DNA of 64,000 nt from Aureimonas sp. Leaf324. Its GTDB lineage: Bacteria > Pseudomonadota > Alphaproteobacteria > Rhizobiales > Rhizobiaceae. This document shows positions 8,466 to 24,399 of the stretch, piece after piece (within the stretch, counting starts at the first letter, position 1; every line of letters begins with the position of its first letter). A program made the position numbers and the translations under genes. Below the pieces are notes generated by a model that was not told the origin of the DNA, did no database searches, and saw only the letters and a list, made by a program, of their open reading frames with translations. Where the stretch lies: the NCBI RefSeq assembly GCF_001423245.1, contig NZ_LMOH01000023.1, positions 207,831 to 271,830 of the forward strand. Direction: 5' to 3'.

Positions 8466-9125
8466 TCAGCGCGTCATCTCCGTCACGATCTCCTCGTAGG
8501 TGCGAGCGACAAAGTCGGCGCCGGCATCGCGCAGTGCGTCGCCGGTGTTAGCGAGGAGATGGGCGCCGCCGAGGAAGCCGTAGGCGACCATGCCGGCAGC
8601 CTTGGCGCCCATGACGCCGAAGCGCGAATCCTCGATCACCAGCGAGCGGGCGGGGTCGAAGCCCATGCGGCTTGCCGCGTGAAGCACGAGGTCGGGCTCG
8701 GGCTTGCCGCGCTTCACGTCGTGCGAGGAGAAGATCGCGTCGGGCGAGAAGAAGCGGTCGAGACCGGTCACCGTCAGGCTGTGCCGGATGCGCTCGTGGT
8801 CGGAGGAGGACGCCACGCAGCGCGGCAGGTCCGAGCGTTCGAGGAACTCGACGATGCCCGGCGTGGGGCGGAGCTCCTGCGTGAACAGCGCCTTGGTCTC
8901 CGTCCAGAAGCGCGGATGGTATTCCTGGTCGAGCGCGCGGCCGGTCTTGATCTCGATGCGCTCGAGAATATCGGCCATCTTCATGCCGACCACGGCATTC
9001 ACCATGTCGGCCGTGACCTCGATGCCGGCCTGCCGGTAGACCGACTGCATCGCGCGGCGGGCGAGGACCTCGCTGTCGACCAGCACGCCGTCGCAATCGA
9101 AGATGATGCCGTCGAACTCGGCCAT
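8466..9125 (-). CDS. HAD-superfamily sugar-phosphate phosphatase
   Basis: HAD subfamily I phosphatase of the beta-phosphoglucomutase/YniC type, 219 residues. Motif I is FDCDGVLVDSEVL (nucleophile and acid Asp); motif II is the CVASSSDHERI region; motif III is the Lys in HDVKRGKPEPDLVL; motif IV is LVIEDSRFGVMGAKAAGM. The ATG at 9125 follows GGGGGAGA, which rejects a longer in-frame start. It lies downstream of the E2 gene after a 129-base gap and may be the last gene of that unit. It could dephosphorylate a toxic or dead-end sugar phosphate; the substrate is not readable. Confidence 0.85.
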   Translation of the reverse strand: MAEFDGIIFDCDGVLVDSEVLARRAMQSVYRQAGIEVTADMVNAVVGMKMADILERIEIKTGRALDQEYHPRFWTETKALFTQELRPTPGIVEFLERSDLPRCVASSSDHERIRHSLTVTGLDRFFSPDAIFSSHDVKRGKPEPDLVLHAASRMGFDPARSLVIEDSRFGVMGAKAAGMVAYGFLGGAHLLANTGDALRDAGADFVARTYEEIVTEMTR

Positions 9126-9254
9126 GGATGGTCTCCCCCTTGTCGGCGCCCGAACGCGGGATGCGCAAAGCCGCCCCGGCGGACCGGAGCGGCCTTGCGG
9201 CACCTTCGCATCGTGTGACCCAGTGCGGCGGATGCGCGCCGACCGGACGACGGA

Positions 9255-10652
9255 CTAGCGTGTCAGCTCGTGGAGCAGGCGGGCGACGTCGCCCTTCTGC
9301 TCGATCTGCGGCATATGTCCCGTCCTCGGGAAAACATGCAAGGCGATCCGCCCCGACAGGCCGGTGAAATGGCGCACCGGGATCACACGATCCTCGGCGC
9401 CGGCAACCAGCTTCACCGGCATCGACAGGTGCGCCAGGAGGTCGCGCACCGAAACGTGTTGCGCGCCATTCGAGAACAGGTGCGTGCCGAGCCGCGACTG
9501 CGCGTCCGCCTGTCGGCCGTCGGCCCGTCCGCGCGCGGTCGCCCGCACGAAGCCGTCGGAGATCGCGCCCGCGTCCGAGACCAGATGGCGGAGCCAGATG
9601 CGCACCGGCGCCTCGGCGGTGGCGCGGGCAAAGCCTTCGGTGAAGCCGGTGTCGATGTCGGGACCGAAGCCGGCCGGCGACAGGAGCATCAGCGAACGCA
9701 CGTCGGTGGCCGTGCCGCTGGCGACGGCCATGGCGACCGCGCCGCCGAGCGAATGGCCGACGAGATGGCAGCTCGTGACGCCGAGCGCGATCAGCGTCTC
9801 CTCGACGCTCGACACCAGCGCGTCGAAGCCGTCCGCCTCCCGATCGAGCGACGCGCCGTGACCGGGCAGGTCAATGCCGAGCACCGGGTTGCCTCCGGTC
9901 AACTCGCCGAGCAGCGGCCGCCAGCTTGCCGTTTCCGATGCGAAGCCGTGGACGAGGACGATCGGAACGCCCTCGCCCTCGCGCAGACGCGTGACGGCGA
10001 GCGGTGTCGCCGCATCGCCCGCCGATGCCGGGGCCCGTGCGGCAGGAGCCGTCTTCGGGGTGCAGGAGAAGGCCGGCTGCGGCGCCGCGGCGGCAGACTG
10101 CAGCGCCTTGACCTCGGACTTGGCGGCAGCCGCCGTTTCCACGTCGTCGCGCCCGATGCGGCCCAGCGGCCCGCTGCCGGTCACGGTGGCAAGATCGATC
10201 CCGTGCTCGCGCGCGATGCGGCGGGCGAGCGGCGTCGCACGCACCCCGCGGCGCTCGCCTTCGGACCCCTGTTTCGCGTCCTCGGGCCGTGCAAACTCTG
10301 CGACCGCCGGGACCACCTCGGCCGGTGCGGGCTTGGAGTCTGTCTCGACGTCGGGGTCGGGCTCGACCTTGGTCTCGACCGAGCCACCGGCCGCGGCGGC
10401 GTCGTAGGCTTCGCCCTCGGCATAGATCCAGGCGACGGGCGCGCCGACCGCGATGTCGACGCCCTCCGCGCCGGTCACGTTGCGCAGCGTCCCGCTCGCC
10501 GGCGCGTCCACTTCCATGGCCGCCTTGTCGGTCTCGATCTCGAAGAGCGGCTCGCCCTTCTTGATCGCGTCGCCTTCCTTGTAGAACCAGCGCGAGATCT
10601 GGCCGGTCGCCATGTCCATGTCGACCTTGGGCAGGATCACTTCGGTCGGCAT
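9255..10652 (-). CDS. acoC: E2 component of acetoin-dehydrogenase-type complex (lipoyl, E3-binding and alpha/beta-hydrolase domains)
   Basis: A 465-residue protein. The lipoyl domain is residues 1-80, with lipoylated Lys43 in EIETDKAAMEV. A linker and a peripheral-subunit-binding domain follow (RATPLARRIAREHGIDLATV, GPLGRIGRDDVE, about 130-165). The C-terminal part is an alpha/beta-hydrolase fold (VPIVLVHGFASETASW, nucleophile Ser301 in VGHSLGGAV, late Asp in AGAEDRVIP and His in RTGHMPQ) instead of the normal E2 acyltransferase domain. This layout is that of acetoin dehydrogenase AcoC. It should carry the acyl group from E1 to CoA. It starts 4 bases after E1-beta. Confidence 0.9.
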   Translation of the reverse strand: MPTEVILPKVDMDMATGQISRWFYKEGDAIKKGEPLFEIETDKAAMEVDAPASGTLRNVTGAEGVDIAVGAPVAWIYAEGEAYDAAAAGGSVETKVEPDPDVETDSKPAPAEVVPAVAEFARPEDAKQGSEGERRGVRATPLARRIAREHGIDLATVTGSGPLGRIGRDDVETAAAAKSEVKALQSAAAAPQPAFSCTPKTAPAARAPASAGDAATPLAVTRLREGEGVPIVLVHGFASETASWRPLLGELTGGNPVLGIDLPGHGASLDREADGFDALVSSVEETLIALGVTSCHLVGHSLGGAVAMAVASGTATDVRSLMLLSPAGFGPDIDTGFTEGFARATAEAPVRIWLRHLVSDAGAISDGFVRATARGRADGRQADAQSRLGTHLFSNGAQHVSVRDLLAHLSMPVKLVAGAEDRVIPVRHFTGLSGRIALHVFPRTGHMPQIEQKGDVARLLHELTR

Positions 10653-10656
10653 GGCC

Positions 10657-22832: not shown

Positions 22833-22856
22833 TTCATATCCGAGGGCCGTCCCGAT

Positions 22857-22890
22857 CCCCGTCCGGGCCGCAGCCCGGGCGGGGTTTTTT
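22857..22890 (+). terminator. Rho-independent terminator after the ABC importer
   Basis: A 12-bp stem (one G-U pair) from 22857-22868 to 22873-22884 with a CGCA loop, followed by six T residues. It closes the importer operon, so the aldehyde dehydrogenase downstream depends on read-through or its own promoter. Confidence 0.88.
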
Positions 22891-22971
22891 ACGTCCCGCC
22901 CTCCTGCCGGCTGGACCGTGAAGCGCGCGGGGTTCTACACCTTTACCGACGCGCGTTCGGGAGGGACCGAC

Positions 22972-24399
22972 ATGAACCACGCCCTGCAGTTCTACATCGA
23001 CGGCGCCTGGGTCGCGCCCGCGACCGACGCCCGCCTCCCGGTGATCGATCCCTCGACCGAGGAAGCCTTCGCCGAGATCGCGCTGGGCGGCGCGGCCGAC
23101 GTCGACCGTGCGGTGGCGGCCGCCCGCCGCGCGTTCCGGTCCTATTCGCAGACCACCCGCGAGGAACGCCTCGCCCTGATGCGCCGCCTTCACGTGGTCT
23201 ACAAGGCGCGCCTGCCGGAGATGGCCGAGGCGATCAGCCGCGAGATGGGCGCGCCCCTCCCCTTCGCGCTCGGCAGTCAGGCCGGGATCGGCACGGCGCA
23301 TCTCGCCAAGATGATCGAGACGCTGGAGACCTACGTCTTCGAGGAGATGCGCGGCACGACGCTGATCGCGCGCGAGCCGATCGGCGTCGTCGGCATGATC
23401 ACGCCGTGGAACTGGCCGATGAACCAGATCATGTGCAAGGTTGCGCCCGCGCTCGCCGCCGGCTGCACCATGGTGCTGAAGCCCTCCGAGATCGCGCCGA
23501 TGAGCGGTCTCCTCTTTGCCGAAATCTGCGACGAGGCGGGCCTACCGAAGGGTGTCTTCAACCTCGTCAACGGCGATGGGCCGGGGGTCGGAGAAGCCAT
23601 GTCGCGCCATCCCGGCATCGACATGATGTCCTTCACCGGCTCGACGCGGGCCGGCATTCTCGTGGCAAAGGGCGCCGCCGACACGATCAAGCGCGTCCAT
23701 CAGGAGCTCGGCGGCAAGTCGGCCAACATCCTCCTGCCCGACGTCGATCTGGAGACCGCCGTCACGAAGGGCGTGCAGGGCTGCTTCGGCAATTCGGGTC
23801 AGAGCTGCAACGCGCCGACGCGCATGTTCGTGCCGGCCGACCGTCACGACGAGGCGGCGGCCATCGCCGCGCGCGCGGCCGATGGCTTCAAGGTCGGCCC
23901 GGCCGATGCCACCTCGACCCAGCTCGGCCCGGTCGTCAGCCAGGTCCAGTACGACAAGATCCAAGGGCTGATAGAGACCGGCATCCGCGAGGGTGCGCGG
24001 CTCGTCGCCGGCGGCCCCGGCCGGCCCGACGGCCTGAACCGCGGCTATTTCGTGCGCCCGACCGTCTTTGCGGGCGTCACGCCCGACATGACCATCGCTC
24101 GCGAGGAAATCTTCGGCCCGGTGCTGTCGATCCTCTCCTACGAGACCGAGGACGAGGCGGCCGAGCTCGCCAACGACACGGTCTACGGGCTCGCGTCCTA
24201 CGTCCAGTCGGCCGACCCGGAGCGGGCGCGCGCCTTCGCGCGGCGCATGCGCACCGGCAACGTCTACATCAACTATCCCGCCTGGGACGCGGGCGCGCCG
24301 TTCGGCGGATACAAGCAGTCGGGGAACGGGCGCGAATATGCTGAGTTCGGGCTGGACGAGTTCCTGGAGATCAAGGGGGTCGTCGGCTGGGGCGCGTGA
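22972..24399 (+). CDS. NAD(P)-dependent aldehyde dehydrogenase
   Basis: A 475-residue ALDH-superfamily enzyme. The catalytic Cys279 lies in FGNSGQSCNAPTRM and the general base Glu245 in VHQELGGKSANI; the NAD-binding ITPWNWPMNQIMCKVAPALAAG and GSTRAGI segments are also present. ATG 22972 has GGGAGGG eight bases upstream. It sits behind the importer terminator in the same direction and probably oxidises an aldehyde formed in the catabolic pathway, perhaps one made by the zinc dehydrogenase at 17891. The substrate is not readable. Confidence 0.92.
   Translation: MNHALQFYIDGAWVAPATDARLPVIDPSTEEAFAEIALGGAADVDRAVAAARRAFRSYSQTTREERLALMRRLHVVYKARLPEMAEAISREMGAPLPFALGSQAGIGTAHLAKMIETLETYVFEEMRGTTLIAREPIGVVGMITPWNWPMNQIMCKVAPALAAGCTMVLKPSEIAPMSGLLFAEICDEAGLPKGVFNLVNGDGPGVGEAMSRHPGIDMMSFTGSTRAGILVAKGAADTIKRVHQELGGKSANILLPDVDLETAVTKGVQGCFGNSGQSCNAPTRMFVPADRHDEAAAIAARAADGFKVGPADATSTQLGPVVSQVQYDKIQGLIETGIREGARLVAGGPGRPDGLNRGYFVRPTVFAGVTPDMTIAREEIFGPVLSILSYETEDEAAELANDTVYGLASYVQSADPERARAFARRMRTGNVYINYPAWDAGAPFGGYKQSGNGREYAEFGLDEFLEIKGVVGWGA

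What the first reader, a model, noticed from the sequence alone, without database searches (positions are those of the whole stretch)
8466..24399. Candidate catabolic pathway for 2-C-methyl-D-erythritol via DRL and an acetoin-dehydrogenase-type complex
The sequence shows one locus with a sugar ABC importer, a PfkB kinase, a DRL-like SAF oxidoreductase, AcoA/AcoB-like E1, an AcoC-like E2, and a SorC/EryD-type regulator. Established knowledge: Brucella DRL interconverts 1-deoxyxylulose 5-phosphate (DXP) and 2-C-methylerythritol 4-phosphate, the DXR reaction is reversible, and acetoin dehydrogenase cleaves an acyloin CH3-CO-CH(OH)-R into acetyl-CoA and an aldehyde. DXP is such an acyloin. Inference: import, phosphorylation, reverse DRL, and cleavage of DXP to acetyl-CoA plus glyceraldehyde 3-phosphate. 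Methylerythritol and its glucosides occur in plants. This would turn part of the isoprenoid pathway into a feeding route.
Basis: partly seen in the sequence, partly recalled or inferred. Interest (0 to 1): 0.93.

Follow-up and report, generated by a model that had tools for sequence, protein, structure and literature searches.

The report
Isoprenoid pathway run backwards for food
A leaf-associated bacterium carries a set of genes that recurs together in other bacteria and likely lets it take up 2-C-methylerythritol, an overflow product of the plant isoprenoid pathway, and it is predicted to run one isoprenoid-making step backwards to burn this compound as food.

Summary
The oxidoreductase at 12777-14096 carries DXR-II (DRL) diagnostic residues. 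Its neighbours E1-alpha/E1-beta belong to a separate clade that tracks DXR-II: among 397 Hyphomicrobiales genomes, 32 of 33 with this E1 also have DXR-II, and 28 of 34 E1 genes lie within 12 kb of it. That PTS occurs in 20 of the 397 genomes: 19 have this E1, and the 20th is a decayed copy of the cluster. In 46 fetched DRL+E1 loci, 23 have this PTS, 14 a MalK-type ABC importer (13 with a PfkB kinase), none both, 9 neither. In six genomes with IspG but no DXR and no HMG-CoA reductase, the only DRL sits beside this E1, so it is the only known candidate for making MEP. Six genomes that keep DXR still carry DRL beside E1. The E1-alpha entrance loop is unusually basic. Best reading: 2-C-methylerythritol -> MEP -> DXP -> acetyl-CoA + glyceraldehyde 3-phosphate. 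This genome lacks DXR but has a second, unlinked DRL, presumably biosynthetic.

The parts
1887..2885 (+). SorC-family sugar-binding regulator of the PTS module
   Evidence: PF04198 188.5 bits
2924..2933 (+). operator-like motif WCAAATGTNC upstream of gutM (motif chosen post hoc)
   Evidence: one of 2 matches in 64 kb, shuffle mean 0.12
2983..3414 (+). GutM-like protein
   Evidence: PF06923 67 bits
3491..4342 (+). glucitol-type PTS IIC
   Evidence: PF03608 218 bits; NF049923 187 bits over cut-off 150
4365..5408 (+). glucitol-type PTS IIB(C)
   Evidence: PF03612/PF07663; NF049924 443 bits over cut-off 400
5489..5869 (+). glucitol-type PTS IIA
   Evidence: PF03829 76 bits; below the NCBIfam cut-offs
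5902..7848 (+). HPr-Enzyme I fusion of the PTS
   Evidence: PF00381, PF05524, PF00391, PF02896; TIGR01417 464 bits
8466..9128 (-). HAD sugar-phosphate phosphatase-like protein; a relative is in 13 of 23 PTS-type and 0 of 14 MalK-type ABC DRL+E1 loci
   Evidence: PF13419 95 bits
9255..10652 (-). E2 of AcoC type (lipoyl + E3-binding + alpha/beta hydrolase)
   Evidence: NF011457 372.5 bits over cut-off 307; PF00364, PF02817, PF12697
10657..11673 (-). E1-beta, proposed DXP dehydrogenase
   Evidence: NF006667 402 bits; clade of 53 rows, support 100/99
11703..12755 (-). E1-alpha, proposed DXP dehydrogenase, with basic entrance loop
   Evidence: PF00676 308 bits; loop
12777..14096 (-). DRL/DXR-II oxidoreductase (in-frame upstream start at 14156 possible)
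   Evidence: PF21135 224 bits; 3upl 475 bits; diagnostic residues
14129..14148 (-). perfect palindrome TTGTCTTCATGAGAAGACAA upstream of DRL, candidate SorC operator; motif hit at 14123-14132
14178..15215 (-). SorC/DeoR-type regulator beside DRL (true start uncertain)
   Evidence: PF04198 181.5 bits
15257..16237 (-). PfkB kinase, related to the kinase of the MalK-type ABC DRL loci
   Evidence: PF00294 123 bits; 57% to the S. meliloti one
16296..17888 (-). GlpD-like FAD oxidoreductase (second module), below the curated glycerol-3-phosphate dehydrogenase cut-offs
   Evidence: PF01266/PF16901
17891..18925 (-). Zn-dependent alcohol/polyol-type dehydrogenase (second module)
   Evidence: PF08240/PF00107
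19279..20226 (+). sugar-binding protein of Rbs-type ABC importer (second module)
   Evidence: NF007254 107 bits, below cut-off
20289..21779 (+). sugar ABC ATPase
   Evidence: PF00005 194 bits; NF008442 499 bits, below cut-off
21840..22832 (+). sugar ABC permease
   Evidence: NF008441 228 bits, below cut-off
22918..24399 (+). aldehyde dehydrogenase, role in the route unknown
   Evidence: PF00171 513 bits

Best explanation
The window carries a conserved cluster whose products are predicted to import and phosphorylate 2-C-methyl-D-erythritol (ME), convert the phosphate (MEP) to 1-deoxyxylulose 5-phosphate (DXP) with a DXR-II/DRL enzyme, and cleave DXP to acetyl-CoA and glyceraldehyde 3-phosphate with an acetoin-dehydrogenase-type E1/E2 complex. 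Inferred steps: (1) the glucitol-type PTS (1887-7848) takes up ME and delivers MEP; in related loci a MalK-type ABC importer plus PfkB kinase would do the same. (2) DRL (12777-14096) runs opposite to its biosynthetic direction, MEP + NADP+ -> DXP. (3) E1 (10657-12755) attacks the acyloin DXP with thiamine diphosphate, leaves an acetyl group on lipoyl-E2 (9255-10652), which passes to CoA, and releases glyceraldehyde 3-phosphate; E3 is not encoded in this cluster and presumably comes from elsewhere in the genome (not tested), but lies inside the cluster in S. meliloti Rm41, Agrobacterium CFBP7129 and Priestia. Shown directly: gene content, clustering, phylogeny, residue patterns and the co-occurrence counts. 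The substrate, the direction and all catalysis are inferred. The GlpD-like/Zn-ADH/Rbs-type ABC module may feed a second, related polyol into the same hub; its substrate is unknown.
For: DRL membership: PF21135, 3upl 475 bits; residues equivalent to Brucella Lys191, Lys193, Thr229, His250, Arg320 and Gly121 are kept in 10 of 10 aligned DRLs and Val351 in at least 9 (residue roles from PMC3847144). E1 tied to DRL: 32 of 33 E1+ genomes have DXR-II against 46 of 364 E1- genomes; 28 of 34 E1 genes within 12 kb of DRL; 33 of 34 plasmid records with E1-beta >=60% identity have DRL within about 10 kb. Boundary control: ten next-nearest E1s of the two genome surveys (54-57%) show neither DRL nor PTS-Gut in the 7.8-19 kb stretches fetched. 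Importer logic: PTS 23, MalK-type ABC 14 (13 with PfkB), both 0, neither 9 of 46 loci. EII-Gut in 20 of 397 genomes, 19 with this E1, the 20th a decayed copy. DRL substrate: 6 genomes with IspG, no DXR, no HMG-CoA reductase and a single DRL, E1-linked. Catabolic need: 6 of 11 DXR+ genomes keep DRL beside E1, two more beside an FGGY kinase. Copy number: in DXR- genomes 15 of 16 with >=2 DXR-II copies have an E1-linked one, against 6 of 51 with one copy. E1 chemistry: entrance loop net +5 or +6 in 53 of 53 rows (mean 5.7), +6 in Priestia, -1 to +3 in 9 others (mean 1.3), 0 in an acetoin operon. PDH makes 1-deoxyxylulose in vitro and aceE mutants make DXP (PMC3424233). Plants accumulate ME and ME-glucosides (PMC11192765, PMC10231375).
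Against: No enzyme, transport or growth assay. Six of 34 E1 genes are not within 12 kb of a DRL, and one E1+ genome (58% complete) shows none. Many DRLs sit with a kinase but no E1 (28 of 166 rows with an FGGY kinase within 9 kb), 87 of 166 rows have none of these neighbours, and the Listeria, Enterococcus and Ligilactobacillus DRL-PTS loci lack E1. Three DXR+ genomes (G121, G155, G370) have DRL without a clear catabolic neighbour at my thresholds. Nine of 46 DRL+E1 loci show neither importer type. The E1-beta GSGTG motif is shared by a Clostridioides plasmid E1 with no DRL in view. A class-wide sample found no E1 above 58% in 371 other genomes, so the cluster is rare outside the order. One of the six sole-DRL genomes (G322) has a stop inside its IspG match. 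A PTS could phosphorylate ME at C1 rather than C4. The DXR equilibrium favours MEP (recalled), so the step must be pulled. Fisher tests ignore relatedness; one genus supplies 8 of the 20 PTS genomes.
Confidence: 0.68

Rival explanations
1. The cluster degrades another compound that becomes DXP or a similar ketose phosphate: free 1-deoxy-D-xylulose, a 2-methyltetrol stereoisomer, or a hydroxymethyl-branched polyol such as apiitol. DRL would then serve a side branch or act on a relative of MEP.
For: The importer and kinase modules vary (PTS, MalK-type ABC + PfkB, Rbs-type ABC + FGGY), and the Mesorhizobium FGGY kinase resembles xylulokinase most (below cut-off); E. coli XylB phosphorylates 1-deoxyxylulose (PMC3424233). 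The Ligilactobacillus locus has transketolase and FSA instead of E1.
Against: If 1-deoxyxylulose were imported, DRL would not be needed, yet six DXR+ genomes keep DRL beside E1. A hydroxymethyl substrate would give E1 a non-acetyl unit. The E1-linked DRL is the only known candidate MEP synthase in six genomes.
Confidence: 0.15
2. Biosynthetic or salvage locus: imported ME or E1-made DXP feeds isoprenoid synthesis, with DRL working towards MEP.
For: The genome lacks DXR, DRL is the biosynthetic enzyme in DXR-less relatives, and PDH-type E1 can make DXP (PMC3424233). Listeria-type loci have PTS and DRL but no E1.
Against: The genome has DXS and a second, unlinked DRL. An E2 (and E3, LipA in some loci) plus importers and SorC regulators point to oxidative breakdown. 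Some DXR+ genomes also carry the cluster.
Confidence: 0.08
3. Ordinary acetoin or 2,3-butanediol catabolism with DRL as a bystander.
For: E1/E2 resemble acetoin dehydrogenase; E2 passes its NCBIfam cut-off. A Zn-dehydrogenase of the same superfamily as butanediol dehydrogenase lies 5 kb away (17891-18925).
Against: That Zn-dehydrogenase is only 26% identical to the Acinetobacter butanediol dehydrogenase, and no acetoin reductase is among the genes identified at 1887-24399, unlike the Acinetobacter operon. The E1 clade is distinct, lies within 12 kb of DRL in 28 of 34 cases, and has a basic entrance loop.
Confidence: 0.04
4. Sorbitol or erythritol catabolism using a glucitol PTS, with DRL-E1 unrelated.
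For: Glucitol-type PTS, GlpD-like enzyme and SorC regulators are present.
Against: In the 397 genomes the PTS occurs only with this E1 or with the decayed remains of the cluster; no FGGY erythritol kinase and no SDR-type sorbitol-6-phosphate dehydrogenase among the genes identified at 1887-24399.
Confidence: 0.05

Closest known systems
Brucella DRL / DXR type II (PDB 3upl, 3upy)
   Same: Same family; window DRL 475 bits, diagnostic residues kept
   Different: Described as an isoprenoid biosynthetic enzyme (PMC3847144); here it sits among importers, a kinase and an acyloin-cleaving-type complex and is proposed to run backwards
Acetoin dehydrogenase complex (AcoABC)
   Same: E1-alpha/E1-beta and AcoC-type E2 architecture; proposed acyloin cleavage to acetyl-CoA and an aldehyde
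   Different: Separate E1 clade, basic entrance loop, linked to DRL rather than to acetoin reductase/butanediol dehydrogenase; proposed substrate is DXP
Glucitol/sorbitol PTS operon (srl/gut)
   Same: GutM, IIC, IIB, IIA domains
   Different: No SDR sorbitol-6-phosphate dehydrogenase identified beside it; in the 397 Hyphomicrobiales genomes found only with the DRL/E1 cluster or its remains
E. coli aceE (PDH E1) suppressors of dxs loss (PMC3424233)
   Same: PDH-type E1 chemistry linked to DXP/1-deoxyxylulose
   Different: Laboratory mutants making DXP; here a natural clade is proposed to break DXP down
Brucella erythritol pathway (EryABCD; recalled)
   Same: Polyol use with SorC/EryD-type regulator and GlpD-like enzyme
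   Different: No DRL or E1 step in that pathway as I recall it; no FGGY erythritol kinase here

Membership tests
DXR type II (DRL) | DRL catalytic domain and similarity to Brucella DRL | tested here: met
   PF21135 224 bits; 3upl 475 bits
DXR type II (DRL) | Residues setting DXR-II apart from DLO1/DLO2 or binding substrate (Thr229, His250, Arg320, Gly121, Val351; Lys191/Lys193) | tested here: met
   Window residues T244, H265, R335, G136, V366, K206, K208; list from PMC3847144. No DLO sequences were put in the tree
DXR type II (DRL) | DXP <-> MEP activity (dxr complementation) | not testable with these tools
   Indirect only: in 6 relatives the E1-linked DRL is the sole known candidate MEP synthase
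Acetoin dehydrogenase complex | E1-alpha/E1-beta plus AcoC-type E2 | tested here: met
   NF011457 372.5 bits, cut-off 307; E1_dh 308 bits
Acetoin dehydrogenase complex | E1 groups with E1 of a known acetoin operon | tested here: not met
   Separate clade from L179 (Acinetobacter acetoin operon, one reference only), support 100/99
Acetoin dehydrogenase complex | Acts on acetoin | not testable with these tools
   Needs enzyme assay
Glucitol/sorbitol PTS | EII-Gut domain set with GutM | tested here: met
   PF03608, PF03612, PF07663, PF03829, PF06923; NF049923 and NF049924 over cut-off, IIA and GutM equivalogs below
Glucitol/sorbitol PTS | Neighbouring sorbitol-6-phosphate dehydrogenase (SDR) | tested here: not met
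   No SDR gene among those identified at 1887-24399; not searched elsewhere in the genome
Erythritol (ery) operon | FGGY erythritol kinase EryA | tested here: not met
   The only kinase identified in the cluster is of the PfkB family

The most novel reading that the evidence does not exclude
DXR-II/DRL is at root a catabolic enzyme: leaf, soil and gut bacteria eat 2-C-methyl-D-erythritol (and perhaps isoprene-derived 2-methyltetrols) by running the first committed isoprenoid step backwards and splitting DXP with a dedicated DXP dehydrogenase complex, and lineages that lost DXR later recruited this feeding enzyme to make their isoprenoids.
Probability: 0.4. Interest if true: 0.93.

Novelty: new variant of a known kind. 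Interest (0 to 1): 0.82.

Why it matters
No route for growth on methylerythritol appeared in the listings of my searches of the held library (open-licence papers only, so a report elsewhere is possible). The cluster would turn part of an essential, drug-targeted pathway into a feeding route. It would also bear on a puzzle stated in PMC3847144: why DXR-II exists beside DXR, and why Finegoldia and Anaerococcus carry DXR-II without a MEP or mevalonate pathway. It names a testable DXP dehydrogenase and a PTS for a branched tetritol, and links plant isoprenoid overflow to leaf bacteria.

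Tried and rejected
Acetoin catabolism: rejected on neighbours, E1 phylogeny and loop charge. DRL as purely biosynthetic here: weakened by the second unlinked DRL and by DXR+ genomes that keep DRL beside E1. A simple 'DXR+ means E1-linked' test was not clear-cut (6 of 11 against 21 of 67), so I do not lean on it alone. The class-wide survey found no close E1 in 371 genomes other than our own, only 55-58% relatives in 6; those six, with four similar ones from the order, have no DRL or PTS-Gut in the fetched stretches and serve as a control. 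The operator motif was found post hoc: WCAAWTGT upstream in 16 of 46 E1-linked DRLs, 18 of 26 GutM genes and 8 of 74 unlinked DRLs, shuffles about 1 each; mononucleotide shuffles are a weak control. The Fisher tests used hand-copied coordinates; one search printed only its best-scoring matches, so weak or truncated DXR-II genes are missing, and DXR-II was told from DLO there by score and by a domain span under 500 bases. The reversibility search gave nothing useful. No structure prediction was run. Of the 46 DRL+E1 loci, L116/L176 are the same genome and L108/L109 the same species; none was dropped from the counts, and the loci were partly picked by me from E1 or DRL hits, so they are not a random sample.

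Full report
What is there. The window lies in a 4.4 Mb genome with 30 contigs; its DRL is 98% identical to one from Aureimonas phyllosphaerae, so this is an Aureimonas-like bacterium. On the minus strand run a HAD phosphatase-like gene, an AcoC-type E2, E1-beta, E1-alpha, DRL, a SorC regulator, a PfkB kinase, a GlpD-like enzyme and a Zn-ADH; on the plus strand an Rbs-type ABC importer and an aldehyde dehydrogenase.

DRL. It matches PF21135 and Brucella DRL. PMC3847144 (abstract, the first part of the text and sections 5, 6, 7 and 9 read) separates a DXR-II clade, 11 members of which were verified by complementation, from two related families in which four tested members failed; the residues named there are present in the window protein. 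The genome has DXS and IspG, no DXR by two Pfam domains, and a second DRL, 68% identical, on contig C25 with no E1, PTS, kinase, importer or SorC homologue found within 7 kb.

Linkage in the order. In a survey of 397 Hyphomicrobiales genomes, 78 have a DXR-II gene by domain length and score (95 genes, list), 33 have the window-type E1-beta at 71% identity or more (37 pass the E-value, 4 of them at 55%), and 20 have a glucitol PTS IIC. E1 and DXR-II: 32 of 33 against 46 of 364. PTS and E1: 19 of 20 against 14 of 377. E1 within 12 kb of DRL: 28 of 34; PTS within 15 kb of E1: 17 of 20. The one PTS genome without E1 (G104) keeps the PTS but only remnants of DRL and E2, so it reads as a decayed copy. 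Fisher values are; they ignore relatedness (the PTS genomes span 12 genera, one genus giving 8 genomes).

Linkage beyond the order. On plasmids, 34 records hold E1-beta at 60% identity or more and 33 of them hold DRL within about 10 kb, including Paracoccus, Pseudoroseomonas and the Bacillota species Priestia aryabhattai (compared by eye). The exception is Rhizobium sp. SSA_523, with no DRL in the 25 kb fetched. Of the 39 plasmid records whose DRL is at least 44% identical, six (one Pararhizobium, five Phyllobacterium) lack this E1 on the same record. The genome-contig scan (best 80 loci kept of more) adds Paracoccus, Limimaricola, Rhodospirillales, Acetobacteraceae and the betaproteobacterium Xenophilus. 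An even sample of 372 genomes across the class, our own included, found no other E1 above 58%, so the cluster is rare there. Ten E1s at 54-57% identity have no DRL or PTS-Gut in the fetched stretches.

Importer logic. Of 132 fetched loci examined, 46 have DRL and E1. Of these, 23 carry the PTS, 14 a MalK-type ABC importer (13 with PfkB), none both, and 9 neither at my thresholds, two of those with PfkB. Three PTS loci also have PfkB, and two of them an Rbs-type importer, as in the window. A PTS phosphorylates what it imports; an ABC importer needs a separate kinase. The swap therefore suggests that DRL acts on the phosphate of the imported compound. Further DRLs sit with an FGGY kinase, SorC and an Rbs-type importer without E1 (Mesorhizobium).

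Which substrate. In six genomes (G085, G188, G264, G322, G336, G372) the only DRL is E1-linked, DXR is absent, HMG-CoA reductase is absent and IspG is present, in G322 with one stop inside the match. That DRL is then the only known candidate for making MEP from DXP, so DRLs of this context should handle MEP/DXP. Conversely, six genomes with DXR keep DRL beside E1, which biosynthesis does not require. In DXR-less genomes, 15 of 16 with two or more copies have an E1-linked copy, against 6 of 51 with one; in eight of those 15 I fetched the other copy: six had no such neighbour and two lay beside an FGGY kinase. This looks like one housekeeping copy and one feeding copy. If DRL acts on MEP and the cluster imports what becomes its substrate, the compound is ME.

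E1. The 53 proteobacterial E1s form one clade (100/99), apart from an Acinetobacter acetoin operon, the genome's own two closest E1 paralogues and six others; Priestia groups with a Clostridioides plasmid E1 on long branches, so its place is unsure. Clade-typical residues lie just before the catalytic His of E1-beta (GSGTG in 52 of 53; also in Priestia and in the Clostridioides plasmid E1, which has no DRL in view) and in the E1-alpha loop that corresponds to the PDH phosphorylation loop at the active-site mouth (the roles of that His and loop in PDH are recalled). The loop carries net +5 or +6 in all 53 and +6 in Priestia, against -1 to +3 in nine others and 0 in the acetoin operon. This fits a phosphorylated substrate but is only suggestive. 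PDH forms 1-deoxyxylulose in vitro and aceE mutants form DXP (PMC3424233, abstract and discussion read). E2 is exchanged between loci: AcoC-type in Aureimonas, acyltransferase type in Agrobacterium and Priestia.

Regulation. In 64 kb the motif WCAAATGTNC occurs twice: upstream of gutM and upstream of DRL, beside a perfect palindrome. The motif was chosen after seeing the sequences, and the palindrome itself is perfect only in the window and its nearest relative among eight upstream stretches looked at.

Ecology. Plants accumulate ME and ME-glucosides when the MEP pathway backs up (PMC11192765 and PMC10231375, passages only), and Aureimonas is found on leaves (PMC7273808, listing and abstract start; otherwise recalled).

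Evolution. On the DRL tree (quick method, midpoint root) catabolic contexts occur in the Bacillota rows and in several separate proteobacterial branches, and the Aurantimonadaceae DRLs without such neighbours nest near the window's clade. Recruitment of a feeding enzyme into biosynthesis is therefore plausible but not shown; no DLO outgroup was used.

Verdict. The pathway is a strong, specific prediction built on known enzyme families in a combination I found no report of. It remains unassayed, and the second module (GlpD-like, Zn-ADH, Rbs-type ABC, ALDH) is unexplained.

Noticed in passing
L224 (G104:C71:25000-44500), 6967-14359: Decayed version of the cluster: PTS-Gut, HAD and SorC remain, with short remnants of DRL and E2 and no E1 found.
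   Followed up: yes
L041, L040, L136: Ligilactobacillus, Listeria and Enterococcus DRL-PTS loci lack E1; the Ligilactobacillus locus has transketolase and fructose-6-phosphate aldolase instead, hinting at a different fate of the product.
   Followed up: partly
L053-L072 (Mesorhizobium and relatives), e.g. L057:11355-12911: DRL beside an FGGY xylulokinase-like kinase, a SorC regulator and an Rbs-type ABC importer, without E1.
   Followed up: partly
window 16296-22832; L038, L137, L108: GlpD-like enzyme, Zn-ADH and Rbs-type ABC recur beside DRL-E1 clusters as a second module of unknown substrate.
   Followed up: partly
L135 (Clostridioides difficile plasmid): E1-E2-E3 set with SorC and a PTS, 57% E1-beta that shares the GSGTG motif, no DRL in the 21 kb seen.
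   Followed up: partly
L003:9312-10643: Second DRL of the same genome, unlinked to importer, kinase or E1; candidate housekeeping MEP synthase.
   Followed up: partly
L036:19806-22004: In Pseudoroseomonas a second PTS (IIC, IIA, IIB) follows the DRL-E1-E2 genes.
   Followed up: no
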